In this document: in pieces, positions 1 to 11,942 of the stretch
Layout: every line of letters begins with the position of its first letter
How positions within the stretch are numbered: position 1 is the first letter of the stretch
Origin: Acidimicrobiaceae bacterium
Lineage (GTDB): Bacteria > Actinomycetota > Acidimicrobiia > Acidimicrobiales > UBA8190
Direction: 5' to 3'
Assembly: GCA_003453695.1 (NCBI GenBank)
Contig: DMNK01000051.1
Coordinates: forward strand, 3,334 to 15,275
Length of the DNA stretch: 11,942 nucleotides
The notes under the pieces: generated by a model
What the model saw: only the letters and a program-made list of their open reading frames with translations
What the model was told of the DNA's origin: nothing
Database searches by the model: none
Made by a program: the position numbers and the translations under genes

Positions 1-1090
1 GGCCGGGCGCAGCGGCGGCGAGCTCTTCGAGGTCGCGCACCCAGTGGGCGAACACGAGGTCGTCTTCGTCCAACGTGGCCAGGTAGCGCCCGGAGGCGAA
101 GCGCGCCCCTTCGTTGAGGGGACGGGCACGCTGGCCCCCTTTCACCTCGATCAGCCGCACCCGCTCGGCGAAGCGCGGGTGGAACTCCGCCACCAAGGTC
201 TCGACATCCTTGCGCGCCGACGGATCGGCGTCGTGTGCGACCAGGATCACCTCGAAGTCGTCGCTGGTCTGGGCGGCCAAGCTCAACAACGCCTCCTGCA
301 GGGTGGCGAGGCGCCTTCCTTGGGTGCGGAGAAGCACAGATAAGAACAGTGCGTCCGGCGCCGGCCCCCGGTCGGCCGGCGTGGCGGCGCCTGGACGGCA
401 CAGCCGCACGAACTCCACCACCCGCCCGCCCGGTCCTGCTGAGTCACGGACACGGGCCAGATGTCCGCCCAGGGGGGTGGCGGGGTCGAGAGCCGGGTCG
501 TCGACGGACAGACCCGGGTCCGGATGTTCGAGGACGAGATCGTTCTCGTCGGCCTGCTCCCACCCGGTCGTGGCGAGAAGACGCTCGAACGGGGCGGCCG
601 CGTACAGCACCGTCGCCCGCCCCTCATCCGCCGGCGGGTCGCCGGCGGGCTCCCACCGGTTGGTCAAGAGGCTGCCGACCACATCGACGTGGGTGGCGTT
701 GGCCACCGTGAACACGACGGGCAGGGCACGGCGCGTCTCTGCCCACCGACGCAATCGGGACAACAGCGCCCCGGGAGACCGCACCTCGGAGAGGGTGCCC
801 ACTAGGCACAGCGCACCAGGGGGGCGCCCTTCCAGGCCCGATTCGATCTCCTGCAGCAGTGTCTCGGGGTCAGAGGGGTCCGCCAGGCGCGTCGCGAAGC
901 CGCGGCGCGCCAGATCGGCGCTGACGGCCGGGTCGTCGCCCACTCCGAGAAAGCCGAACCCGAGCTCCCGCATGCGCTCGGCGACGGGCGCCATACCGAA
1001 GGCCACGTCGACCACGACGTCGCCCGGACGGAGCCCGTACCGTTCGAGAAGGTCGAGCGCAGACCGGGCCGCACCCTTCCGTGTCGTCAT
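1..1090 (-). CDS. Methyltransferase-like / GT2 glycosyltransferase fusion protein (3' end outside window)
   Basis: Reading from the ATG at 1090-1088 toward base 1, the frame stays open for 363 codons and leaves the window, so the C-terminus is missing. Residues about 10-130 resemble a class I SAM-dependent methyltransferase fold: VVVDVAFG at 25-32 sits where motif I would be, but the usual glycine-rich D-x-G-x-G loop is degraded. From about 248 a GT-A glycosyltransferase domain begins (FLSVLLRTQGRR, then a repeated-strand core with DFEVILVAHD at 278-287), and DEDD at 341-344 is a good DxD-type metal/nucleotide-sugar motif. The start overlaps the stop of the upstream glycosyltransferase as ATGA, which suggests translational coupling in one operon. 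The likely role is transfer of a sugar onto a surface polysaccharide or glycan. The methyltransferase part may be inactive or structural. The glycosyltransferase call is firm; substrate and product are unknown. Confidence 0.8.
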   Translation of the reverse strand, partial: MTTRKGAARSALDLLERYGLRPGDVVVDVAFGMAPVAERMRELGFGFLGVGDDPAVSADLARRGFATRLADPSDPETLLQEIESGLEGRPPGALCLVGTLSEVRSPGALLSRLRRWAETRRALPVVFTVANATHVDVVGSLLTNRWEPAGDPPADEGRATVLYAAAPFERLLATTGWEQADENDLVLEHPDPGLSVDDPALDPATPLGGHLARVRDSAGPGGRVVEFVRLCRPGAATPADRGPAPDALFLSVLLRTQGRRLATLQEALLSLAAQTSDDFEVILVAHDADPSARKDVETLVAEFHPRFAERVRLIEVKGGQRARPLNEGARFASGRYLATLDEDDLVFAHWVRDLEELAAAAPG

Positions 1091-2144: not shown

Positions 2145-2160
2145 GTGTGAAATTTCACAC
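2145..2160. promoter_or_regulatory. Perfect 16-bp palindrome, candidate operator at a divergent promoter
   Basis: GTGTGAAATTTCACAC is a perfect inverted repeat. It lies in the region between the divergent glycosyltransferase operon and the CAP-domain gene and covers the likely GTG start of the latter (2147-2149). Its half-sites TGTGA/TCACA look like those of CRP/FNR-type regulators, but the spacing is four bases rather than six, so the regulator family is open. A repressor bound here would block the start region of the plus-strand gene. The AT-rich centre stands out in a GC-rich background. The palindrome is seen directly; the function is inferred. Confidence 0.5.
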
Positions 2161-4165
2161 CCACTTCCCCCAGGGTCCTGTTCGTCTCGCTTCCCGTGCC
2201 ATCCGTCGGCGTGTCGGCGCCGCGGTGCTGATCGGTGCATGCGGTGTCTGCGGTAGCGCCATGGTCACGACGCCCGGTGTCGCCCAGCCCGGCGCGGTCA
2301 AGGGGCCGGCTCACGGACAGCCTGCTCCCGTCACGGCCGCGGCCGGCATCGTTCCGCCGAGCAACCCACCGCAGAACATCCCGCCCAGTCCGAACTTCCT
2401 GAACAACTGCTCGGGGAGTCAGTACGACAATTCGTCGAGCTGCACCAACGCAGCCATCACGGCCATCGACAACGCCCGGACCCATGAAGGGCTCGGTCCC
2501 ATGGCGCTGCCGTCGCAGTGGTACTCGCTGAGCCCGGCTCAGCAGCTCTACGTCGCCACCAACCTCGAGCGTGCCGATCGCGGGCTGCCTGTTCTGTCCG
2601 GCATGGCGAGCGCCCTCGACGGTTCTGCCGCTCAGGGCGCGGCGACGAGCCAGGACCCCGAGCCGCCCGCCGGGTTCCCCTGGTCGTCGTGGGGCAGTAA
2701 CTGGGCCGGCGCCGTCGGCAACCCTCTCGAGGCCATCTACTACTGGATGTACGACGACGGCCAGGGGTCGGGGAACATCGACTGCACACCGTCGAACACG
2801 AGCGGCTGCTGGGGACATCGCGACAACGTGCTCATGAACCTGCGGTGCCAGCCGTGCGACATGGGGACCGCATACAACGGATCCGGTTACCAGGGGTACC
2901 CGAGCTGGGCCGAGATCCTCGTGGACACCTCGGGCAGTCCGCAGCTCGACTACTCGTGGGCCCAGGTCTACCCGGCTGGTCCGGGACCTTCCGCACCGCC
3001 TCCGGGCCCGTCGACGGCCCAGGGCGGGAACGGTCCTGCTCCGGGGGTGATCGAACAGTCGAACGGCGCGCCCTCGATGTTCGTCGAGGGACCCGGTGGC
3101 TCGCTCATGAACTACTGGTACATCCCCCAGAGCGGGTCCTGGGGCGCGGGCACCGTGGCCGGGCCCGGCAATGCCGCCTCGGCGCCCGGAGTGGTGGCGC
3201 AGTCGAACGGCGCGCCGTCGGTGTTCGTGGAGGGCCCTGGTGGCTCGCTGCTCAACTTCTGGTACATCCCGTCCTCGGGTTCGTGGGGTGAGGGCACGGT
3301 GGCCGGGCCCGGGAGCGTCAGCTCCGAGCCCTCGGTGATCGAGCAGTCCAACGGCGCACCCTCGGTGTTCGTCGAAGGCCCGGGCGGGGCCCTCATGAAC
3401 TACTGGTACATCCCCCAGAACGGGTCCTGGGGCGCCGCCACCGTCGCCGGCCAGGGCAATGTGGCGTCCACCCCCGGCGTCCTCGAGCAGTCCAACGGCG
3501 CTCCCACCGTGTTCGTGGAGGGCCCTGGTGGCTCGCTCATGAACTACTGGTACATCCCCCAGAACGGGTCCTGGGGCGCGGGCACCGTGGCCGGCCTGGG
3601 CAACGTCGCCTCGGCTCCGACCGTGGTCCCGCAGTCCAACGGTGCCCCGTCGGCCTTCGTCGAGGGCCCGGGTGGGTCGCTGCTCAACTTCTGGTACATC
3701 CCACAGGGCGGCGGCTGGGGTGCGGGCACCGTGGCCGGCCTGGGCAACGTCGCCTCGGCTCCGACCGTGGTCCCGCAGTCCAACGGTGCCCCGTCGGTCT
3801 TCGTCGAGGGCCCGGGTGGGTCGCTGCTCAACTTCTGGTACATCCCACAGGGCGGCGGCTGGGGTGCGGGCACCGTGGCCGGCCTCGGCAACGTCGCCTC
3901 GGCACCGACCGCCTTGGAGCAGTCCAACGGTGCCCCGACCGTCTTCGTCGAGGGCCCGGGTGGGTCGCTGCTCAACTTCTGGTACATCCCACAGGGCGGC
4001 GGCTGGGGTGCGGGCACCGTGGCCAGCCTGGGCAGCGTCTCATCGGCGCCGGGAGTGATCGCCCAGTCCAACGGCGCACCCTCGGTCTTCGTCGCCAACC
4101 CGGACCTGAACTACTGGTACATCCCGCAAAGTGGATCGTGGGGAGCGGGCACCGTCGCCGGGTGA
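2147..4165 (+). CDS. Secreted CAP/SCP-domain protein with C-terminal propeller-type repeats
   Basis: 672 residues from GTG 2147, the only start codon in this frame that keeps the basic n-region (RLASRAIRRR, 13-22) of the signal peptide; its hydrophobic core is about 23-40. Residues about 100-265 form a CAP (cysteine-rich secretory protein/antigen 5/PR-1) domain: a helix with NLERADRGLP (139-148), then GSNWA (183-187), IYYWMYDDG (197-205) and the signature CWGHRDNVLMNL (221-232). His224 of the conserved GH pair is present, but the usual GEN motif reads GSN, so one Glu of the CAP metal/acid cluster is missing. Cysteines at 88, 99, 213, 221, 234 and 237 suggest disulfides and an extracellular site. 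A Pro/Gly-rich linker (277-298) leads to eight tandem repeats (305-672). CAP proteins have varied roles, and no enzyme activity is claimed. No good Shine-Dalgarno is seen; the start codon lies inside the palindrome at 2145-2160. Confidence 0.82.
   Translation: MKFHTHFPQGPVRLASRAIRRRVGAAVLIGACGVCGSAMVTTPGVAQPGAVKGPAHGQPAPVTAAAGIVPPSNPPQNIPPSPNFLNNCSGSQYDNSSSCTNAAITAIDNARTHEGLGPMALPSQWYSLSPAQQLYVATNLERADRGLPVLSGMASALDGSAAQGAATSQDPEPPAGFPWSSWGSNWAGAVGNPLEAIYYWMYDDGQGSGNIDCTPSNTSGCWGHRDNVLMNLRCQPCDMGTAYNGSGYQGYPSWAEILVDTSGSPQLDYSWAQVYPAGPGPSAPPPGPSTAQGGNGPAPGVIEQSNGAPSMFVEGPGGSLMNYWYIPQSGSWGAGTVAGPGNAASAPGVVAQSNGAPSVFVEGPGGSLLNFWYIPSSGSWGEGTVAGPGSVSSEPSVIEQSNGAPSVFVEGPGGALMNYWYIPQNGSWGAATVAGQGNVASTPGVLEQSNGAPTVFVEGPGGSLMNYWYIPQNGSWGAGTVAGLGNVASAPTVVPQSNGAPSAFVEGPGGSLLNFWYIPQGGGWGAGTVAGLGNVASAPTVVPQSNGAPSVFVEGPGGSLLNFWYIPQGGGWGAGTVAGLGNVASAPTALEQSNGAPTVFVEGPGGSLLNFWYIPQGGGWGAGTVASLGSVSSAPGVIAQSNGAPSVFVANPDLNYWYIPQSGSWGAGTVAG
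3059..4162 (+). repeat. Eight tandem 144-bp units (48-residue propeller-like repeats) in the CAP gene
   Basis: Seven full units start at 3059, 3203, 3347, 3491, 3635, 3779 and 3923, and a shortened eighth starts at 4067. Each encodes 48 residues on the plan SNGAPSVFVEGPGGSL, then NYWYIP or NFWYIP, GWGAGTVAG and a closing strand ending in Q. Unit 8 lacks three residues in the EGPGGSL part and stops after GTVAG. The repeat length and the aromatic W/Y spacing resemble lectin-type beta-propeller blades such as those of the Photorhabdus lectin PLL; this is a pattern match by eye, not a search result. Copies around 3578-3741 and 3722-3885 are almost identical in DNA, with one visible mismatch (C3654/T3798), so expansion is recent or the units are kept alike by recombination. 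Confidence 0.9.
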
Positions 4166-4380
4166 CCAGGCAGGCCCTCGTGCGCCATGCCCGACGCCGA
4201 CTGACACGACGGAGGTAGGCGGAGCGCTTCGAGTGGAAGCCGACAGGCCGAAACAACCCCCATTGTCCATCCAAACAATTCCTTCCCTGCCCACCGAGTT
4301 TCCTGTACCGTTTTCCCCCGTTGTCGTGCCGGGTGGCGGGCCCGGTCTCTTCCCCCAGATCTTTCAGAAAGGCCCTCGTC
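4166..4380 (+). promoter_or_regulatory. Intergenic leader before the lysozyme-like gene, with Shine-Dalgarno
   Basis: 215 bases without a convincing gene. AAAGG at 4368-4372 is a Shine-Dalgarno placed eight bases before GTG 4381 and decides that start. The stretch about 4255-4315 is richer in A/T than its surroundings and holds TACCGT (4306-4311), a weak -10-like hexamer of the TAnnnT type with no good -35, so a separate promoter here is possible but unproven. A five-base-stem hairpin at 4226-4240 is too weak to call a terminator. Confidence 0.45.
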
Positions 4381-6009
4381 GTGGTGCGTTCGCTCGCAAG
4401 CCCGAGACGGTGTTTCGCCGTCGGGCTGTCCGCTCTCGTCCTCCCGGTGTTGCAACTGTGCTCGCAGCCCATGGCGACGGCGGCGGTGCAGACACCGGCG
4501 CCGCCCACCGTCCCGCCTTGCGTCTACAACCCGGTGGACTTCGCCCACGCCTTTCTGAATTCCATCTCGATGCCGATCACGGCCCAGAACGTCGAGGCCA
4601 TCATCGCCTGGGAGCGCGCCGAGGGAGGCAACTGGAAGAACACCGCCAAGTTCAACCCGTTGGACACGACTTGGCCGGGAGGCGGGGCCCACTACGACGG
4701 GTCCACCTCCATGAACAGCGTCAACGTGCAGGCGTACAGCAACTGGGACGACGGCGTCTACGCCACGGCCGAGACCATCACCGACAACGGCGCCTACCCA
4801 CCGGGTGACTCGTTCACCGCTTCCACCGGTTACGACCAGATCCTCTCTGCCCTGAAGGCGGGCAACAACGCCCAGGCCGTGACCGATGCCGTGGACAACT
4901 CGGCATGGGGAACGACCAACGCCACCGGCAACCTCGGCCTTGCCTACAACCCGCCCGCCCCACCCTGGGAAGGCCCGTGCGTCGGCACCCCGTCGGTGTT
5001 CGTGGTCCCGGGTAACAGCGCCCTCATGAACTACTGGTACACCGACGGCACCTGGTACAGCTCGGCCGTGGCGGGCTCGGGCGTGGCGTCGCAGGTGGCC
5101 ACCTTGAACCAGCCCAACGGGGCCGCCACCGTCTTCGTGGCCGGCGCCGGCAACGCCCTCATGAACTACTGGTACGTGCCCGCTACGGGGGGCTGGGGCG
5201 CCGCCACGGTGGCCGGCCAGGGTTCGGCCTTCTCCGCTCCGGGCGCCATCAACCAGCTCAACGGCAGCCCGTCGGTGTTCGTCGAGGGTCCCGGGGGGTC
5301 GCTGTTCAATTACTGGTACATCCCCCAGAGCGGGGCCTGGGGCGCCGCCACCGTGGCGCCGCCCGGATCGGTGGCTTCGGCCCCGGCCGTGGTGGCACAG
5401 AACAACGGGGCACCCTCGGTGTTCGTGGCGGGGCCCGGTGGCACGTTGGTCAACTACTGGTACGTGCCCGAGACCGGAGGCTGGAACAGCCACGTCATCG
5501 CCGGTCCGGGGAGCACAGCGGGGGCGGTGGGTGTCGTGAACCAGCCGGCCAACGGTGCGCCCACGGTGTTCGTCCACACGCCGGGTGGTGCGCTCATCAA
5601 CTACTGGTACATCCCCGATCCCGGGATCTGGGGCGCAGGCACGGTGGAAGGTTCGGGCTCCACGGCGAGCACCCCGGCCGTCATGTTGCAGCCCAACACC
5701 GCCCCCACGATCTTCGTGCAGTCACCCGGGGGTGCGCTGCTCAACTACTGGTACATCCCCCAGGGTGGCTTCTGGGGTGCCGGCACCGTGGCCGGCAACG
5801 GCTCTGTGTACTCGGCGCCCGGGGTGGTGCCGCAGTCGAACGGCGATCCGTCGGTGTTCGTCCAAGGCGGGAACGGGGCTCTCCTGAACTACTGGTACAT
5901 CCCCCAGGGTGGCTTCTGGGGTGCCGGCACCGTGGCCCCGGCCAACAGCACCTCGACGGCGCCCGGACTGCTGGTGAGCGCCAACATGCAGACCAGCCAG
6001 TCGTCCTGA
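4381..6009 (+). CDS. Secreted lysozyme-like protein with C-terminal seven-unit propeller repeats
   Basis: 542 residues from GTG 4381, chosen because AAAGG lies eight bases upstream and because it yields a clean signal peptide: basic RSLASPRR, hydrophobic core about 12-27, likely cleavage near ATAA at 32-35. GTG 4384 is equally possible. Residues about 50-190 resemble the lysozyme-like/phage-tail muramidase group: AIIAWERAEGG (73-83), FNPLDTTWPGG (91-101), then VQAYSNWDDGVYATAETI (116-133), a Y-x-x-I-x-x-A-L repeat (151-158) and a closing SAWGT (174-178). Glu78 or Glu81 is the likely catalytic acid. The expected role is cleavage of the glycan backbone of peptidoglycan outside the cell. From residue 202 seven repeats follow, of the same type as in the gene upstream. 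It runs in the same direction as the CAP gene, 215 bases downstream. The muramidase assignment rests on motif memory and would need a profile search. Confidence 0.78.
   Translation: MVRSLASPRRCFAVGLSALVLPVLQLCSQPMATAAVQTPAPPTVPPCVYNPVDFAHAFLNSISMPITAQNVEAIIAWERAEGGNWKNTAKFNPLDTTWPGGGAHYDGSTSMNSVNVQAYSNWDDGVYATAETITDNGAYPPGDSFTASTGYDQILSALKAGNNAQAVTDAVDNSAWGTTNATGNLGLAYNPPAPPWEGPCVGTPSVFVVPGNSALMNYWYTDGTWYSSAVAGSGVASQVATLNQPNGAATVFVAGAGNALMNYWYVPATGGWGAATVAGQGSAFSAPGAINQLNGSPSVFVEGPGGSLFNYWYIPQSGAWGAATVAPPGSVASAPAVVAQNNGAPSVFVAGPGGTLVNYWYVPETGGWNSHVIAGPGSTAGAVGVVNQPANGAPTVFVHTPGGALINYWYIPDPGIWGAGTVEGSGSTASTPAVMLQPNTAPTIFVQSPGGALLNYWYIPQGGFWGAGTVAGNGSVYSAPGVVPQSNGDPSVFVQGGNGALLNYWYIPQGGFWGAGTVAPANSTSTAPGLLVSANMQTSQSS
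4984..5979 (+). repeat. Seven tandem 48-residue propeller-like units in the lysozyme-like gene
   Basis: Units start at about 4984 (short, 43 residues), 5113, 5257, 5401, 5545 (49 residues), 5692 and 5836. They share the plan of the CAP gene repeats (SVFVEGPGGSL, NYWYIP, GWGAATVAG, a closing strand ending in Q), but individual units are more diverged. An exception is the 51-base stretch 5743-5793, which is identical to 5887-5937. The last unit keeps its closing strand (TAPGLLV), unlike the last unit of the CAP gene. Seven blades of this length suit a closed propeller, and the shared repeat type suggests both proteins bind the same kind of ligand. Confidence 0.88.
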
Positions 6010-6030
6010 CCCCTCGCTACGCGTGCCGGT

Positions 6031-6053
6031 CCCGTCGGCGCTCGCCGAGCGGG
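6031..6053. terminator. Candidate bidirectional hairpin between convergent genes
   Basis: CCCG TCGGC at 6031-6039, loop GCTC at 6040-6043 and GCCGA g CGGG at 6044-6053 form a nine-base-pair stem with one bulged G. It sits between the stop of the lysozyme-like gene (6009) and the stop of the convergent lipoprotein gene (6061), where a shared terminator would be expected. No U-tract follows on either strand, so intrinsic termination is uncertain. Confidence 0.4.
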
Positions 6054-6060
6054 TCCGTGC

Positions 6061-6552
6061 TCACTGTGGTGCCGCGGTCAGGGTGAAGCTGCACTGGGAG
6101 GCTGAAGCCACGAAGCGCAGGTAGCCGGTGCACCCCCCGAGCACGAAGGTGCTGCCCGAGTAGGTGGCGGTGAACTGGCCCGGCCCGCCGCCTTGGGACG
6201 TGAGCTGCGCCTGTCCTCCTCCGGCACTGCCGGTGAAGGAGAACTCCGGCTTCGACGTCCCGTCCTGGTAGACGTAGTTGACGGTGCCGCTCACGGCACC
6301 GTCAGGCTGCACGGCGAGCACGACGTAGGTGTGCGGTGTTCCGGTGGGCCCGTCGGCGTAGGTCCCGTTCGCCGGCAGGGCCCCAGCCCCGGCCGACGAG
6401 GTCGACGTCGTGCTCGGGGCGGACGTGAGCGGTACGGCCGTGGGGCTCGAGCTCGTCGATGACGTCGACCCGGACGGACCTCCGTTGCCGCAGCCGGCGG
6501 CGCCCAGTGCCGCTGCCAGCATGCCGATGCCGAAGACGGCGCCGCGCCGCAA
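6061..6552 (-). CDS. Small secreted lipoprotein of unknown function
   Basis: 163 residues from TTG 6552-6550, with GAGG six bases upstream. The N-terminus is a lipoprotein signal peptide: RR at 2-3, a hydrophobic stretch, and a lipobox-like GAAGC ending at Cys21. A Ser/Thr/Pro-rich spacer (about 25-60) follows, typical of exported actinobacterial lipoproteins. The globular part (about 60-163) looks all-beta: TYVVLAVQPDGAVSGTVNYV, then FSFTGSAGG, FTATYSGSTFVLGG and a closing strand. Cys141 and Cys154 could form a disulfide. It starts 31 bases after the stop of the YfhO-type gene on the same strand, so the two are probably co-transcribed and may work together at the outer face of the membrane. 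The family is not recognised. An ATG ten codons in would leave too short a signal peptide. Confidence 0.7.
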   Translation of the reverse strand: MRRGAVFGIGMLAAALGAAGCGNGGPSGSTSSTSSSPTAVPLTSAPSTTSTSSAGAGALPANGTYADGPTGTPHTYVVLAVQPDGAVSGTVNYVYQDGTSKPEFSFTGSAGGGQAQLTSQGGGPGQFTATYSGSTFVLGGCTGYLRFVASASQCSFTLTAAPQ

Positions 6553-6583
6553 AGGGCGCCTCGAACGCAGGCGTGAAAGGGAC

Positions 6584-9106
6584 TCAGGAGGGCGAATGAC
6601 CGGACCTTATCGGTCGCGCCCGGTCGGTCTCGTGCACCCTCGGCACTGTGCCGCCACGCCACAACGCCCACACACCGGCGCCTACGAGCACGGCCAATCC
6701 GACGAAGAAGGCGAGCAACGCCCACAACAGATGCGGTGGGGCGAAGCTGAAGTGCACGGTCGACACCCCGGCCGGCACGGACAGCGCCTCGAAGATGCCC
6801 CCCACCGTCTTCACCGGCGCCGCCCGGCCGTCCACGGTGGCGCTCCAACCCTGCAGCGAGAGCTCATGACGGACGAGCACGGCCCGCCGTGGGCACGACA
6901 CCGTGGCCGTGGCCCAGTCCTGCGCTGCCACCGTGCACCGGGCGTCCGCCACGGAGAAGAACGGTGCCGGATGGGGCAGCTGGTACACCCTGGTGAGCTG
7001 GTCGGCGAACACCAGGGGCACCCCGGACAGCTGTGGTGGCGGCCACGGGTGGCCGGTCGAGTCCAGCCCGCTGAGGAATTCCACGACGTACTTGACGCCG
7101 ATGGCCTCGTAGCTGGCCAGGTGACCGGTGAGCTCCTCGCCGGCGGAGGTACCGGCAGGGTTCTTGGTGACGGCCCCCGTGAAGTTGAGCGGGTCCACGT
7201 TGGTGTCGAGATGGTGGGCGATGTAGTGCGCGTAGGCGGTGGGGACGGGGACGTCGTTGACGTTCACCTGGGCGATGTCGAAGTAGGACCCGTAGTTGGG
7301 CTGCAGCGGTCCCAGCGTGGCGAATCGGTGCAGACCGAGGTTGTGCTGGAGGAATTGGACGACGGCCAGGTCGACCGGTTGGCGCGTGGGCGCCGAGAGA
7401 AGCGGGGTGGCGAACATCACCACGGCGTCGAGGACCACCACGCACCCGGCCAATGCCAGCGCACCACGGCGCAGCCGTCGCCGGTTCGGTGGTGCGCCTT
7501 CGGGGGCGCCCCGTCGCCCGGCCACCAGGAAGCACGCCGTGATGACCGCCACGGTGACCATCGCCCACATCCCGTTGGCGAGGTCGTAGACGTGGCGGTG
7601 GGCCGTCCCCACCGTGCTCGTGCCCGCATTGCCGACGCTGTGGGTGACGACGGGCCAGGCGGCGGCCATGGCCCCCGTCACCAGGCCCAGGGTGACGGCG
7701 GCGGCGGCGACGGGCACCCAGGGGCGGACTCGTCCCCGCACCACGTCGTCGATCCCGAGGGCGGCGAGCACCACCACCGCCATCTCCCACGACGCCGGCG
7801 AATAGCGGTAGGTGGCGGTGTGCTGGAGCCCGGGGAAGTGGGTGAGCCACCGAGCCAGGGGATCCAGGCCGTAGCTCTTGGCCAGGGCCAGGAAGATCCA
7901 GAGCACCAGGGCCAGGCGCAGCAGACGCAGGCGCCGGCCCACGACGCCGACCAAGGCGCACACGGTCAGGGCGGCGCTGACATAGCCGCCGACATTGCCC
8001 CAGATGACGGTCAGGGTCTGCGAATCAGTGGAGTGGAAGGCGAAGATCGGGCCGTACACATAGGGCAGCACCACCGTGGACAGCGCCCGGGGCGGCAGGG
8101 CGGCGTTGGCCACCGATGTGGCGTGCACGCCGATGTCGGCGTGGGGCAGGTAGGTGGCGAACGCCACCAGGATGGGCGCGCTCAACAAGCCGCCGACGAT
8201 CGCCCCCACCGCCAACTTGCCGACGAACCGGCTCCGATCCGTTCCGCTCGTGACGAAGCGGACCCCCACCCACAGCACGGCGAACAAGCCGTCCAGATAT
8301 GCCGTCTCTGGAAATCCGGAGACGGCGGCCAACGCCAGTGCCACCGCCAGGAGGGCCCAGCCGCTCATTCTCTTGTGTCGCGCCCCGTCCAGGCAGCGCT
8401 CGACTGCCAGCAAGGTGAGCGGCAGGAAGGCGACGGGGTTGGCAGGGGCGTGGGTGAACCAGGCGAACGTGCCGCACAGGCCGAAGGCGACGGCGCCTGC
8501 CGTTGCCCCGAGTCGCCCGATGCGCAGCCGTCGCAGCAGGAAGTAGGTCGACCAACCGGCGGTCAGCTCGAGAAGGAGATGGAAGAGGACGAATCCCCAG
8601 GCGCCGCCGTCGAACAGCAGCACCAGCGGGAAGAAGGCCGCTGATTGCATCTCGCCGGCCAGCGGGGCGCCGATGCCCTCGAAGGGATTCCACCAAGGGA
8701 CGTGTCCGTGCAGCCAGGAGCTGGCCGAGAGCCGACCGAACGACTGGGTGATGTAGCCGGCGTTCGGATCGATGCTCGGCACGCCGGGGAACAGCTGGTG
8801 CGCGTTACCCGATTGCAATACCGCATCGAGCTGCAGCGGGTTGTTCGTGACGACATGAAGCAGTGTTGGAACGTTGACGATGAGCACGCACAGCGTTACC
8901 ATCACGACGGGCGGGGAGTGCTCGTGCAGGAGAAGCTCCCGACAGAACTGACGAGGTCGTGTCAGCAATCGCTGTGTTTCCCCCGTCAGCGCGTCACGCC
9001 CGCGTGTCGACGCCCTGCCCCTTCGCTTCCTGCCAATCAACGTCGGCATCGACGGTTGCGCCGGCGTCGGGCCGTGCGACGCCTCGCTCTGGTCCTCCCC
9101 GGGCAC
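6584..9106 (-). CDS. YfhO-type polytopic membrane protein (GT-C-like glycosyltransferase family)
   Basis: 840 residues from GTG 9106; ATG 9049 (residue 20) is an alternative and neither has a strong Shine-Dalgarno. After a basic cytosolic N-terminus come roughly a dozen hydrophobic segments, the first near 67-86. The first extracytoplasmic loop holds VPWWNPFEGIGAPLAGEMQ, the P-W-W-N-P...G-x-P-L...Q motif of YfhO and related lipid-linked-sugar transferases. The C-terminal third contains an extracytoplasmic domain with LQPNYGSYFD and the late segment GWSATVDGRAAPV followed by a last membrane helix, also typical of YfhO. In Bacillus, YfhO helps decorate lipoteichoic acid with sugars; here the acceptor is unknown. 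It stands alone on the minus strand with the small lipoprotein gene downstream, between the propeller proteins. The family is fairly sure; the substrate is not. Confidence 0.85.
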   Translation of the reverse strand: MPGEDQSEASHGPTPAQPSMPTLIGRKRRGRASTRGRDALTGETQRLLTRPRQFCRELLLHEHSPPVVMVTLCVLIVNVPTLLHVVTNNPLQLDAVLQSGNAHQLFPGVPSIDPNAGYITQSFGRLSASSWLHGHVPWWNPFEGIGAPLAGEMQSAAFFPLVLLFDGGAWGFVLFHLLLELTAGWSTYFLLRRLRIGRLGATAGAVAFGLCGTFAWFTHAPANPVAFLPLTLLAVERCLDGARHKRMSGWALLAVALALAAVSGFPETAYLDGLFAVLWVGVRFVTSGTDRSRFVGKLAVGAIVGGLLSAPILVAFATYLPHADIGVHATSVANAALPPRALSTVVLPYVYGPIFAFHSTDSQTLTVIWGNVGGYVSAALTVCALVGVVGRRLRLLRLALVLWIFLALAKSYGLDPLARWLTHFPGLQHTATYRYSPASWEMAVVVLAALGIDDVVRGRVRPWVPVAAAAVTLGLVTGAMAAAWPVVTHSVGNAGTSTVGTAHRHVYDLANGMWAMVTVAVITACFLVAGRRGAPEGAPPNRRRLRRGALALAGCVVVLDAVVMFATPLLSAPTRQPVDLAVVQFLQHNLGLHRFATLGPLQPNYGSYFDIAQVNVNDVPVPTAYAHYIAHHLDTNVDPLNFTGAVTKNPAGTSAGEELTGHLASYEAIGVKYVVEFLSGLDSTGHPWPPPQLSGVPLVFADQLTRVYQLPHPAPFFSVADARCTVAAQDWATATVSCPRRAVLVRHELSLQGWSATVDGRAAPVKTVGGIFEALSVPAGVSTVHFSFAPPHLLWALLAFFVGLAVLVGAGVWALWRGGTVPRVHETDRARPIRSGHSPS

Positions 9107-9114
9107 GGGCCTGG

Positions 9115-9120
9115 ATCATA
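9115..9120 (-). promoter_or_regulatory. Candidate -10 element of the YfhO-type gene (possible leaderless mRNA)
   Basis: On the minus strand TATGAT lies eight bases before GTG 9106. With this spacing transcription would start on or next to the start codon, the arrangement of leaderless actinobacterial transcripts. It would also explain the lack of a Shine-Dalgarno. No -35 match is seen 17 bases upstream. Confidence 0.4.
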
Positions 9121-9122
9121 GG

Positions 9123-9147
9123 GTCCGGGCCTTTCGGGCCCCGGGAC
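9123..9147. promoter_or_regulatory. GC-rich hairpin in the divergent intergenic region
   Basis: GGGCC (9127-9131), loop TTTCG and GGCCC (9137-9141) form a tight stem, extended by CC/GG pairs with one bulged C (9142). It lies directly behind the -10 candidate of the YfhO-type gene and about 120 bases before the CHAP gene start. It could be an operator or an RNA hairpin in a CHAP mRNA leader. The rest of the 9107-9266 gap shows no gene. Confidence 0.3.
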
Positions 9148-9254
9148 ACCGAAGTTCTTGCGCTGTCGCTCAACTCGAGCGCTGATCTGCCGAATTCCCT
9201 CTGAAGCCGTCCGCTGTGCCGCGCCTCGACCGCCCTCGTCGTTCATCAGGCCCC

Positions 9255-9259
9255 AGGAG
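9255..9259 (+). promoter_or_regulatory. Shine-Dalgarno of the CHAP gene
   Basis: AGGAG lies seven bases before ATG 9267. This fixes the start at 9267 over the in-frame GTG at 9216, which has no such site and would add 17 residues in front of the signal peptide. Confidence 0.75.
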
Positions 9260-9266
9260 CCGTCCC

Positions 9267-11042
9267 ATGCCCACCATGACTCCGACATCGTCCATCCGAG
9301 CAGGCGGTCGCCGCCGGGTGCGCTCCGCCGCCGGCCACTGCTGGCGCCGGGTCCTCACCGCCCTCGGGGCCTCCGCAGCGCTGTCGTTCCTTCCCGCCGT
9401 GCTGGCGGCGCCGAGCGCTCTCCCCGCCGCGGCGGCGTCCACGGCACCGAGCATGGCCTCCACCGTCCCCAACCTGCCCGTCGTGGCGGTGCAGGGGCCC
9501 AATCACAGCCTCTGGATCTACTGGCAGCTCGCCAACACCACCTGGCTCGGCCCCGCCGGCCCGGGCGCCCCCGGGTCCACCTGGTCGAGCCCGTCGGTCG
9601 CCGTCACCAAGGCGGGACTGGGCGTGGTGGCGGTGCAAGGCCCCGACCACTCGTTGTGGATCTACTGGGAGCTCCCGACCGGCCAGTGGATCGGCCCCGC
9701 AGGACCGGGCGCACCGGGCTCGACGTACGGCTCGCCCACGGTGACGATCCTCCCCTCGGGGCTGGCCATGGTGGCGGCGCAGGGGCCGTCCAACACGCTG
9801 TACATCTACTGGGAGCTGCCCGACGGGCAGTGGGCCGGCCCGGCCGGCCCGGGCCAGATCGGCACGACCTATTCGTCGCCGAGCATCGCCGTCGGCTCCA
9901 AGGGCCTGCCCGTGATCGCCGTCCAGGGTCCCGCCAACAGCCTGTGGACCTACACCCAGCAACTGAACGGCTCGTGGACGACCCAGATGGGTGTGGGCGC
10001 CGCCGGCACCACGTGGTCGTCACCGTCGTTGGCCGCCGGTCCGAAGGGTCTGCTCTACGCGGCCGTGGAGGGACCGAGCAACACCCTGTACATCTTCCAA
10101 CAGAACTCGACGGGACAGTGGATCGGCCCGGCCGGGCCGGGAGGGTGGGGGTCCACCAATGGTGCACCCTCGATCTCCGTCGACCAGAACGGTGTCGCCG
10201 ACGTCGCCGTGCAGGGACCGGGCAACAGCTTGTGGATCTACTGGCAGGAACCCGACGGTGCCTGGTACGGGCCGGCCGGCGCCGGGGGCCCGGGGTCCAC
10301 GTACTCGTCGCCGAGCATGGCCCTCGGGCCGGGAGGTCTGCCCGAGGCAGCGGTCGAGGGCCCGTCCAACAGCTTGTGGATCTACTGGTACCTGCCCACC
10401 GGCCTGTGGGTCGGACCGGCTGGGCCGGGGGCGCCGGGATCGGACAACCCCTCGGGCGACCCCGGGACCGCCAACATCCCTCCGCCGCCGTCGGGGGTGG
10501 GCGATGTCACCGCCGCCATCGCCACCGGCCAGGACGGCACCGCCGACAATCCGCCCAGCACCCGGTTCGCCTTGGACTGCAACCCCTACACGGCGGTGCT
10601 CTACGGGCGCCCCATCGCAGCAGCGTGCGGGGTCAACAACTACTTCGGCGTCCGCAACGCCAACGAGGAGTGGTGCGCCGACTTCGCCAAGCTGGTGTGG
10701 CTCTCCGCCGGTGAGGGGTGGAACACCGGAGTACTTAGCCCCAGCGCCGCCAGCTTCTACGCCTGGGGTGCCCAACGGGGCGAATCGCTGGTGGCCAACA
10801 GCGGCTCACCGCAGGTGGGAGACGCCATCGTGTTCTTCCCGCCCGGCTCTGTCGGCGGCGGCTACGCCGACCACGTGGGTATCGTCTCGGCCGTGAACCC
10901 GAACGGGACGATCGACATCGTGAACGGCGACTTCCTGCAGAGCCAGAACATCGCCGTCGAGCAGGACAACGACGTTCTGCCCGGTCCGTACGCGTCGAGC
11001 ATCTGGAGTCCCGGCGAGCAGTGGGTCTACGTCGCCCCCTGA
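9267..11042 (+). CDS. Secreted CHAP-domain peptidoglycan hydrolase with N-terminal seven-unit propeller
   Basis: 591 residues from ATG 9267. The signal peptide has a basic n-region (RAGGRRRVRS, 11-20; RR at 27-28) and a hydrophobic core of about 30-48, with likely cleavage near AAAA at 54-57. Residues 69 to about 393 are seven repeats of exactly 48 residues. After a Pro-rich linker (about 394-412), residues about 435-591 form a CHAP (NlpC/P60-like cysteine amidase/endopeptidase) domain: EEWCADFAKLVW with nucleophile Cys470, GDAIVFF (518-524), DHVGIVSAV with His536, and IVNGDF (551-556), where Asn553 or Asp555 is the likely third residue. Cys438 and Cys454 may pair. Such domains cut peptide or amide bonds in peptidoglycan, outside the cell. 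The order of modules is reversed relative to the CAP and lysozyme-like proteins, where the catalytic or CAP part comes first. It is divergent from the YfhO-type gene. Confidence 0.88.
   Translation: MPTMTPTSSIRAGGRRRVRSAAGHCWRRVLTALGASAALSFLPAVLAAPSALPAAAASTAPSMASTVPNLPVVAVQGPNHSLWIYWQLANTTWLGPAGPGAPGSTWSSPSVAVTKAGLGVVAVQGPDHSLWIYWELPTGQWIGPAGPGAPGSTYGSPTVTILPSGLAMVAAQGPSNTLYIYWELPDGQWAGPAGPGQIGTTYSSPSIAVGSKGLPVIAVQGPANSLWTYTQQLNGSWTTQMGVGAAGTTWSSPSLAAGPKGLLYAAVEGPSNTLYIFQQNSTGQWIGPAGPGGWGSTNGAPSISVDQNGVADVAVQGPGNSLWIYWQEPDGAWYGPAGAGGPGSTYSSPSMALGPGGLPEAAVEGPSNSLWIYWYLPTGLWVGPAGPGAPGSDNPSGDPGTANIPPPPSGVGDVTAAIATGQDGTADNPPSTRFALDCNPYTAVLYGRPIAAACGVNNYFGVRNANEEWCADFAKLVWLSAGEGWNTGVLSPSAASFYAWGAQRGESLVANSGSPQVGDAIVFFPPGSVGGGYADHVGIVSAVNPNGTIDIVNGDFLQSQNIAVEQDNDVLPGPYASSIWSPGEQWVYVAP
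9471..10445 (+). repeat. Seven tandem 144-bp units (48-residue repeats) in the CHAP gene
   Basis: Units start at 9471, 9615, 9759, 9903, 10047, 10191 and 10335; the first six are each exactly 48 codons. The plan is GLPVVAVQGP, xNSLWIYW, LPxGQWIGPAGPG, GSTYSSPSxAV. It aligns with the CAP and lysozyme-like repeats through G-P-x-x-S-L-x-x-Y-W-x-x-P-x-x-G-x-W. It forms a separate clade, however, with a GPAGPGAPG segment where the others have GAGTVAGPG. Unit 7 lacks the closing SPSxAV strand, and a matching APSMAS stretch stands just before unit 1 (residues 60-65), as in propellers closed by pairing of N- and C-terminal strands. Confidence 0.9.
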
Positions 11043-11059
11043 CGCCGTGCCGGCCGGCC

Positions 11060-11626
11060 GTGTCGACGGCCGTCGCCCGCAAGGCAGGAGGAGGGGTTCT
11101 CATCTCGTTGACGGTGACGCTGGCCGCCTGCAGCGCCTCTCCGTCGGCGAGCCACCACGCCGGCTCCACGACGTCGTCTTCGACCACCTCCACGGTCGCC
11201 CCGACGACGGGCCCCAAGCCGGTGCCGTCGACGTCCGCCACCACGCTGCCGCAGTACCCCGCGTCGGGACCGACTGAGAACATCATCCCGAGCGCCCAGG
11301 ACCTCGCCGCCTTCGAAGCGGCGTACGCGTCTTTCCGCGGCATCCCAGAATCCGACATCGGCAGCACCCAGCCGGGCTCGACCCACGAGGCCTTCCAGCC
11401 TTCGGCGCAGATGTTCTGGGGAACGGCGCGATACGAGCCGTCCCAGTCAGCGGGTCAGGATGCAGCTTCCTTTCAGGACGGAGGGAACGTGGGCGTCTTC
11501 ACCCGCACCCCGGCCGGTGCGTGGAAGATGACCGAGGTCGGCGGCGAGCCGTTCCCGTGCCCCGGCGAGCTGCCGCCGGACGTGCTCAGCGTGTGGGGCA
11601 TGACCACCTCGGCCTACTGCCATTAG
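11060..11626 (+). CDS. Small secreted lipoprotein of unknown function
   Basis: 188 residues from GTG 11060, giving MSTAVARKAGGG, a short hydrophobic stretch and the lipobox LAAC with lipidated Cys24. GTG 11021 in the same frame would overlap the CHAP gene by 22 bases and lengthen the signal peptide to 36 residues; it is less likely but not excluded. A Ser/Thr-rich spacer (about 25-65) precedes a small globular domain (about 70-188) with FEAAYASFRGIPESDIG, a central FQDGGNVGVFTR and a C-terminal PCPGELPPDVLSVW segment; two Cys near the end (in FPCPG and AYCH) may pair. The gene follows the CHAP stop by 17 bases and is probably co-transcribed with it, which suggests a role at the envelope. The purine-rich AGGAGGAGGGG near 11086-11096 lies inside the gene and serves no sensible start. 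The family is not recognised. Confidence 0.68.
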   Translation: MSTAVARKAGGGVLISLTVTLAACSASPSASHHAGSTTSSSTTSTVAPTTGPKPVPSTSATTLPQYPASGPTENIIPSAQDLAAFEAAYASFRGIPESDIGSTQPGSTHEAFQPSAQMFWGTARYEPSQSAGQDAASFQDGGNVGVFTRTPAGAWKMTEVGGEPFPCPGELPPDVLSVWGMTTSAYCH

Positions 11627-11662: not shown

Positions 11663-11942
11663 ATGGAGAGTGAATTTCGAGGCTCGTCGGGGCCTCTCAG
11701 GGCACCGGGCACGCCGTACATGCGCACGAGCTTGAGCGACGCCGCCTCCACCGAGATCTTCCAGCGCCTGCTCAAAGAGCGCATCATCTTCATCGGCACG
11801 GCCATCGACGAGAACGTGGCCAACCTGGTGTGCGCCCAGCTGCTGCTGCTCGCCGCCGAGGACGCCGAGCGTGACATCGCCGTCTACGTCAATTCGCCGG
11901 GAGGTTCGGTCACCGACGGCCTGGCCATCTACGACACCATGC
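11663..11942 (+). CDS. clpP: ATP-dependent Clp protease proteolytic subunit ClpP (5' part, runs off window)
   Basis: 93 codons from ATG 11663 to the right edge. The protein begins with a short variable leader, then [36 protein letters not shown], a helix rich in Leu ([11 protein letters not shown]) and the near-invariant ClpP segment [20 protein letters not shown] (residues 72-91), the oxyanion-loop region of the S14 serine peptidase family. The catalytic Ser, His and Asp lie further on, outside the window. ClpP forms a barrel of two heptamer rings that degrades proteins fed by Clp ATPases in the cytoplasm. Actinobacteria usually have two adjacent clpP genes followed by clpX; this may be either copy. 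It is a housekeeping gene and probably marks the edge of the envelope cluster, with its own promoter. Confidence 0.95.

What the first reader, a model, noticed from the sequence alone, without database searches (positions are those of the whole stretch)
2147..11042. Three exported proteins with different wall-active modules share one 48-residue propeller-type repeat
A CAP domain, a muramidase-like domain and a CHAP hydrolase domain are each joined to seven or eight repeats on one scheme (G-P-x-x-S-L-x-x-Y-W-x-x-P-x-x-G-x-W). The order of modules is catalytic-first in two and repeat-first in one. Repeats of about 48 residues with conserved aromatics are known from lectin-type beta-propellers. 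The inference is that a shared glycan-binding propeller directs different hydrolases to the same surface polymer, beside genes that glycosylate that polymer (glycosyltransferases 1-2037, YfhO-type 6584-9106). I do not know of this set being described as a system.
Basis: partly seen in the sequence, partly recalled or inferred. Interest (0 to 1): 0.8.

Follow-up and report, generated by a model that had tools for sequence, protein, structure and literature searches.

The report
Exported proteins sharing lectin-like propellers
Three neighbouring bacterial genes encode proteins, probably exported, that each join a different domain, one of them a likely cell-wall cutter, to the same kind of ring-shaped, lectin-like module, and a related bacterium has matching genes in which two of the modules are of a different version.

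Summary
The repeats are real and are PLL-type (DUF346) propellers: sequence of all three, and predicted folds of two, match Photorhabdus PLL/PHL lectins. CHAP is confirmed; 'CAP' is weakly supported and divergent; 'muramidase' has no family support. The module is not special to wall hydrolases: this genome has ten further propeller ORFs or fragments, with S53, PQQ-like and other partners. Clustering recurs: in a same-genus genome CHAP-, CAP- and 'Lys'-propeller genes lie, over two contigs, beside ClpP, a Wzm/Wzt-type exporter, a glycosyltransferase and an S53-propeller gene; the window's genome has the same set, also over two contigs. New: two propeller types. Between the genomes the CAP and Lys domains are 75% and 51% identical, their propellers 29% and 32%; CAP and Lys propellers of one genome are 60-61% identical. 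A single origin of type A on the CAP tree is rejected (p-AU 5.6e-5, tested after seeing a tree). Best reading: exoenzymes tethered to a surface glycan by exchangeable lectin propellers. Sugar binding, ligand, and self versus competitor targeting are unproven; PHL's sugar-contact residues are mostly replaced.

The parts
2147..4165 (+). P0001: divergent CAP-like domain + type A PLL propeller (8 repeats); export inferred by eye
2324..3001 (+). divergent CAP-like domain (residues 60-285)
   Evidence: relatives in 36 of 148 genomes
3044..4162 (+). type A propeller repeats of P0001; 144-bp period at 3056-4094
4321..6009 (+). P0002: 'Lys' domain + type A PLL propeller (7 blades)
4483..4986 (+). 'Lys' domain (residues 55-222), conserved AEGG, NP[LQ][DN]T, WGT; enzyme class not established
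4987..5979 (+). type A seven-bladed propeller (model, residues 223-553)
9216..11042 (+). P0003: type B PLL propeller (7 repeats) + CHAP
9474..10418 (+). type B propeller (NCBIfam beta_propeller_lectin, residues 87-401, below its cut-off)
10458..11039 (+). CHAP domain (Cys in EEWC, His in DHVG)
2..1090 (-). glycosyltransferase family 2, runs out of the window
   Evidence: its continuation L047
1087..2115 (-). glycosyltransferase-like (PF13641, 27.1 bits against a cut-off of 27)
6584..9106 (-). YfhO-like membrane protein
11720..11942 (+). start of ClpP, in G001 and G003 the gene between Lys-propeller and Wzm/Wzt

Best explanation
The window holds part of a set of probably secreted proteins, several of them enzymes, that share an exchangeable, PLL-type seven-bladed propeller. 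The set lies on both sides of a ClpP / Wzm-Wzt-type polysaccharide-export / glycosyltransferase cassette. Most likely each propeller binds, with several weak sites, a glycan on or around the producing cell and so holds its partner (CHAP hydrolase, CAP-like protein, 'Lys' protein, S53 peptidase) at the envelope, where it trims wall or envelope polymers. The two propeller types would match different glycans. Shown: propeller homology, predicted fold of two, CHAP family, clustering in two genomes, two types, at least one exchange on the CAP tree. Inferred: export, sugar binding, glycan identity, self-targeting, enzyme activity, and the adjoining of contigs.
For: Propellers; models give 7 blades for P0002 (residues 223-553) and 7 blades of moderate to good confidence for P0001; the top 22 Foldseek PDB matches of each model are PLL/PHL lectins. 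Clustering: G001 C86 has CHAP-PLL then CAP-PLL; G001 C102 has at one end a propeller fragment, then Lys-PLL, ClpP, Wzm, Wzt, GT, S53-PLL, PLL; G003 has Lys-PLL, ClpP, Wzm, Wzt, GT; in G000, C106 ends inside ClpP and an end of C64 carries the next part of ClpP, then Wzm, Wzt, GT, S53-PLL. In another MAG Lys-PLL and CAP-PLL bear consecutive locus tags and equal contig lengths (VK386_03700/03705). Module exchange: identities; CAP tree with P0008 (type A) inside type B at branches 99/94 and 99/98, p-AU 5.57e-05. Precedent: a beta-propeller lectin of Streptomyces umbrella toxins binds hypervariable wall teichuronic-acid-like polymers (PMC13274773, abstract and passages).
Against: PHL's sugar contacts are mostly gone: the Glu93 position is Ser, Thr or Asn in 168 of 168 type A blades; the Trp199 position is Trp in 40 of 168 (A) and 119 of 182 (B); the Trp214 position is Trp in 0 of 182 (B) and Trp is not among the six commonest residues in A. 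Partners such as PQQ-like, S53 and GH5 are not wall enzymes. CHAP has type B in the genome where CAP and Lys have type A. G002, same genus, 89% complete, has no propeller match. The Lys fold is unresolved and CAP is weak. Similarity follows type rather than genome: the G001 CAP propeller is 64% identical to the Lys propeller of G003. Within type A, CAP and Lys propellers mostly match their own gene family best.
Confidence: 0.5

Rival explanations
1. The set is offensive: lectin-guided bacteriolysins that bind glycans of competing bacteria, like the lectins of umbrella particles, and cut their walls. Propeller exchange reflects an arms race with target glycans.
For: The CHAP domain matches two PHROG endolysin families (E 8.6e-7 and 2.8e-4); propeller lectins diversify for target binding in Streptomyces; module exchange on the CAP tree.
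Against: Genes sit beside a polysaccharide exporter conserved in synteny; several partners (PQQ-like, S53, Ig-like) are not bacteriolytic. No search for immunity genes was made, so their absence is not claimed.
Confidence: 0.2
2. The propellers are general extracellular modules for matrix polysaccharide, environmental polymers or protein contacts; the wall-active partners are incidental and adjacency reflects local gene duplication of a secreted-protein family.
For: 13 propeller ORFs or fragments on 10 contigs of one genome, mixed partners; loss of most PHL sugar-contact residues; a putative hydrophobic site of PLL3 is occupied by a peptide in the crystal (PMC6943638, passages).
Against: Same cluster with the exporter in two genomes; partners elsewhere include PF03734+PF01471 (L,D-transpeptidase and peptidoglycan-binding, names recalled), polysaccharide deacetylase and CHAP.
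Confidence: 0.27
3. Propeller type differences arose by ordinary divergence and horizontal transfer of whole genes, not by module exchange tied to function.
For: Within type A, CAP and Lys propellers mostly group by gene family; the four genomes of the genus are MAGs, 58-89% complete; the Lys tree needs only one change of type, though weakly supported.
Against: CAP domains 75% identical carry propellers 29% identical in syntenic loci; AU test on CAP.
Confidence: 0.2

Closest known systems
PLL/PHL lectins of Photorhabdus (DUF346, UniLectin PropLec7A)
   Same: Seven-bladed propeller, repeated W-motif blades, best sequence and fold matches; DUF346 named a PLL-like lectin in PMC7778903 (passage)
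   Different: Those are single-domain lectins (PHL: passage); here fused to other domains, several of them enzymes; most PHL sugar-contact residues replaced
Choline-binding and GW-module autolysins of Gram-positive bacteria (recalled; search listing only)
   Same: One repeated surface-binding module shared by different hydrolases
   Different: Different fold; there the ligand is known (recalled)
Streptomyces umbrella toxin UmbA lectins (PMC13274773)
   Same: Diverse lectin domains, seven-bladed propellers among them, aimed at variable actinobacterial wall glycans (abstract and passages)
   Different: Multi-protein toxin particles; here single-chain fusions, no toxin domain seen
Wzm/Wzt polysaccharide export loci
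   Same: In G001 ABC-2 permease and Wzt with Wzt_C over Pfam cut-offs, and a GT2 protein; NCBIfam Wzm and Wzt/TagH models match far below their cut-offs
   Different: ClpP and propeller-fused proteins are part of the neighbourhood; exported polymer unknown

Membership tests
PLL-type (DUF346) propeller lectins | Sequence homology to DUF346 / PLL lectins | tested here: met
   PF03984 over cut-off in P0001 and P0002; P0003 by PDB search E 2.2e-12 and NF052348 E 1.8e-17 below its cut-off, no PF03984
PLL-type (DUF346) propeller lectins | Seven-bladed closed propeller fold | tested here: met
   P0002 model, TM 0.84 to PLL4 normalised by target; P0001 7 blades plus an unplaced 8th repeat; P0003 not modelled
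PLL-type (DUF346) propeller lectins | Conserved sugar-contact residues of PHL | tested here: not met
   against the PHL contacts in passages of PMC5584973; the stacking Trp is fixed by the search pattern and so untested
PLL-type (DUF346) propeller lectins | Sugar binding | not testable with these tools
   needs protein
CHAP peptidoglycan hydrolases | PF05257 with catalytic Cys and His | tested here: met
   motifs in 8 of 10 rows (two of the 10, P0156 and L106, are one protein), P0158 and P0159, whose CHAP lies in front, lacking them
CAP/SCP superfamily | PF00188 match | tested here: inconclusive
   none on P0001; 1 of 36 and 3 of 27 members at E up to 1; hhalign E 3.7e-4, prob 36% versus 0.2% and 1.5% in two cross comparisons
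CAP/SCP superfamily | GEN-type Glu of the CAP cavity (role recalled) | tested here: not met
   GENV of true CAP relatives lies at GSNW in P0001
Lysozyme / lytic transglycosylase | Match to a lysozyme-type family | tested here: not met
   SLT profile prob 0.1%; other lysozyme families not compared as profiles; parts of the domain model have low confidence
Choline-binding-like autolysin sets | Shared module confined to wall enzymes and binding the cell's own wall polymer | tested here: inconclusive
   module also on non-wall partners; ligand unknown

The most novel reading that the evidence does not exclude
A lectin-module exchange system: several exoproteins at one polysaccharide-export locus (CAP-like, Lys, S53) carry propellers of one type that are exchanged together for another type when the cell's exported glycan changes, so that they stay matched to the cell's own envelope.
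Probability: 0.22. Interest if true: 0.75.

Novelty: new variant of a known kind. Interest (0 to 1): 0.52.

Why it matters
The PLL-type propellers with solved structures are free lectins of Photorhabdus. Here they look like an interchangeable targeting part of exported enzymes in uncultured Acidimicrobiales, next to genes for polysaccharide export. Conserved enzyme halves with two unlike lectin halves in syntenic loci make a direct test possible: does the lectin type follow the glycan?

Tried and rejected
Muramidase reading: rejected as stated. CAP by a single-sequence Pfam search: no hit; only relatives and a profile comparison give weak support. Propeller similarity set by genome (homogenisation): rejected; similarity follows type, and within type A mostly the gene family. 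Eight-bladed propeller for P0001: the model leaves the 8th repeat out and repeats 5 and 6 are 98% identical DNA, so the copy number may be a recent duplication or an assembly effect. Phage origin: PHROGs hits for CHAP and one weak one (E 0.05) for the type A propeller; the phage and viral collections were not searched. Co-occurrence in the rest of the family: no propeller match.

Limits: the AU test was run after the tree had been seen, which the tool warns of. The lgn contig with P0008 and P0018 and the VK386 contig could not be opened; their linkage rests on equal contig lengths and, for VK386, consecutive tags. In some searches only 5 or 6 candidates per genome were scored, so those counts are lower bounds. 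One search counts come from patterns that fix some columns and run over 245 sequences (231 proteins and 14 locus ORFs) with duplicates. Only 120 of 284 P0001 relatives were listed. CAP trees used 24 rows (16 propeller fusions and 8 of the 91 without) and 16 rows; rows with under 75% coverage were dropped. Gene calls in loci come from a home-made codon-position score.

Full report
Observation. Three ORFs lie at 2147-4165, 4321-6009 and 9216-11042 on the + strand. Each has a leader-like N-terminus (read by eye; no signal-peptide tool was run) and 8, 7 and 7 repeats of about 48 residues. The first array is a 144-bp tandem repeat. Pfam reports DUF346 in P0001 (E 5.3e-14) and P0002 (5.9e-9), CHAP and an FG-GAP-like stretch in P0003. 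NCBIfam's 'beta propeller lectin' matches P0003 (E 1.8e-17, below its cut-off), not P0001 or P0002.

Fold. PDB sequence searches give Photorhabdus PLL/PHL lectins for all three. The P0002 model (mean pLDDT 71.7, 11 aligned sequences) has seven blades between 223 and 553; its 22 best Foldseek PDB matches are PLL/PHL lectins, then BP39L and fucose lectins. The P0001 model (mean 57.7, 14 sequences) has seven blades at moderate to good confidence, an unplaced last repeat and an unresolved CAP part; again the 22 best matches are PLL/PHL lectins. P0003 was not modelled.

Other halves. CHAP is sound. The 'CAP' half belongs to a family seen in 36 of 148 genomes; among the 107 sequences with it that my searches returned, 91 carry no propeller of these types. 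P0001 itself has no PF00188 match; 1 of 36 full-length relatives (E 0.005) and 3 of 27 domains (best E 0.0017) do. A profile comparison with true CAP domains aligns NLERxxRGLP and GHRxNIL at E 3.7e-4, probability 36%, against 0.2% and 1.5% in two cross comparisons; the GEN motif is replaced. The 'Lys' half has conserved AEGG, NP[LQ][DN]T and WGT (11 of 11 propeller fusions) but no family match and none to SLT. I treat it as an unassigned domain.

Two propeller types. P0001/P0002 repeats (type A) and P0003 repeats (type B) differ. In 231 proteins scanned only P0207 and P0209 showed a match to both patterns, one each. Of 107 sequences with the CAP-like domain 8 carry type A, 8 type B, 91 neither; of 19 with the Lys domain 6, 5 and 8; of 28 with this CHAP 0, 9 and 19; of 6 with this S53 peptidase 3, 3 and 0, two pairs of which are the same protein twice. 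PQQ (P0074 A, P0162 B), PF03734+PF01471 (P0133 and P0137 A, P0160 B) and polysaccharide deacetylase partners (P0127 and P0131 A; G001 C131 B) also occur with either type.

Genome and neighbourhood. The genome (MAG, 3.1 Mb, 71% complete) has 13 propeller ORFs or contig-edge fragments on 10 contigs, the window's three included. Pfam names PQQ_2, pro-kumamolisin and, below its cut-off, Big_1 among the partners. With a type A query 3 of 148 genomes match, all of one genus; the same-genus G002 does not. With type B, 5 of 397 of the order, two of them weakly; with a G001 propeller 6 of 396 of the phylum, only the own genome strongly. In G001 CHAP-PLL is followed by CAP-PLL on C86, which ends inside CAP; C102 has at one end a propeller fragment, then Lys-PLL, ClpP, Wzm, Wzt, a glycosyltransferase, S53-PLL and a further propeller. 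That the two contigs adjoin is an inference. G003 has Lys-PLL, ClpP, Wzm, Wzt, GT. In the window's genome ClpP starts at 11720 and contig C106 ends in it; an end of C64 carries the next part of ClpP, then Wzm (79% identical to G001), Wzt (83 and 67%, in two pieces), GT (61%) and S53-PLL (S53 family). YfhO and a lipoprotein-like ORF lie between Lys and CHAP here; in G001 CHAP and CAP are direct neighbours.

Exchange of modules. G000 versus G001: CAP halves 75%, propellers 29% (146 residues, the G001 gene being cut); Lys halves 51%, propellers 32%; CHAP halves 60%, propellers 51%. CAP and Lys propellers of one genome are 60% (G000) and 61% (G001, 135 residues) identical, but the G001 CAP propeller is also 64% identical to the G003 Lys propeller: type, not genome, sets the similarity. 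On the CAP tree P0008, type A, sits inside type B at branches 99/94 and 99/98, and one clade of type A is rejected (p-AU 5.57e-05, tested after one search had been seen). The P0008 propeller (three repeats) is nearest to other CAP type A propellers (72-73%), so a recombination at the domain border is likely. The Lys tree needs only one change, weakly supported. Neighbouring CAP and Lys share a type in 4 of 4 loci known or inferred to hold both (G000, G001, VK386, the lgn contig), too few and too related for statistics.

Ligand. PHL contacts were taken from passages of PMC5584973 and placed by me on the PDB alignment. In one search (168 type A and 182 type B blades; patterns fix the stacking Trp) the Arg91 position is mostly Ala/Ser (140 of 168, A) or Leu (149 of 182, B), Glu93 is Ser/Thr/Asn (168 of 168, A), Thr194 is Thr in 16 of 168 (A) and 1 of 182 (B), Trp199 is Trp in 40 of 168 and 119 of 182, and Trp214 is replaced (Pro in 165 of 182, Trp in none, B). 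The specificity cannot be read from PHL.

Mechanism. Best reading: lectin propellers hold different exoproteins at a glycan of the cell envelope, probably linked to the exported polymer. This rests on fold, clustering and exchange; glycan binding and self-targeting are inferred. Competitor targeting, as for umbrella toxins (PMC13274773), and a general matrix-binding role remain open.

Literature. Searches for 'DUF346' (15 papers), 'CHAP domain + propeller + peptidoglycan + lectin' (none), 'beta-propeller + peptidoglycan hydrolase + lectin + Actinobacteria', 'PropLec7A', 'PLL-like...' (12 of 63 listed) and 'beta-propeller + lectin + CHAP + endolysin' listed no paper whose title or abstract start describes such a set. 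I saw listings, and passages of PMC6943638, PMC5584973, PMC12203525, PMC7778903, PMC13274773 and PMC12355970; no paper was read whole. The library lacks most subscription papers.

Noticed in passing
A4 members such as P0038, P0077: Many relatives of the CAP-like domain are joined to another repeat (consensus ..GYW..ASDGGIFAFGDA..GS.GG..); sources name several of them 'ribosomal protein L24E'.
   Followed up: partly
genomes G000-G016 (family f1): Canonical CAP (PF00188) is found in only 1 of 17 genomes of this family, while the divergent CAP-like family is present in all 17.
   Followed up: partly
window 3050-4165: P0001 repeats 5 and 6 are 98% identical in DNA; CAP-propeller relatives show 2 to 8 repeats, several with a shortened last repeat, so copy number may vary or be an assembly effect.
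   Followed up: partly
L040 (C154) and L046 (C68): Two propeller proteins share an unnamed C-terminal domain ending ..AGIAMI.Q.W.GQ.
   Followed up: no
L277:3210-4594 and L048:275-431: Wzt of the own genome is split over two ORFs and its ClpP has about 150 extra bases near the contig end; assembly errors are possible.
   Followed up: no
window 6061-6552 (-) and 11021-11626 (+): Two lipoprotein-like ORFs without a family match over cut-off lie beside YfhO and behind CHAP.
   Followed up: no
L156, L157, window 11720: A ClpP gene sits directly before Wzm/Wzt in G001 and G003, and here follows the CHAP-propeller and lipoprotein-like genes; the link is unexplained.
   Followed up: no
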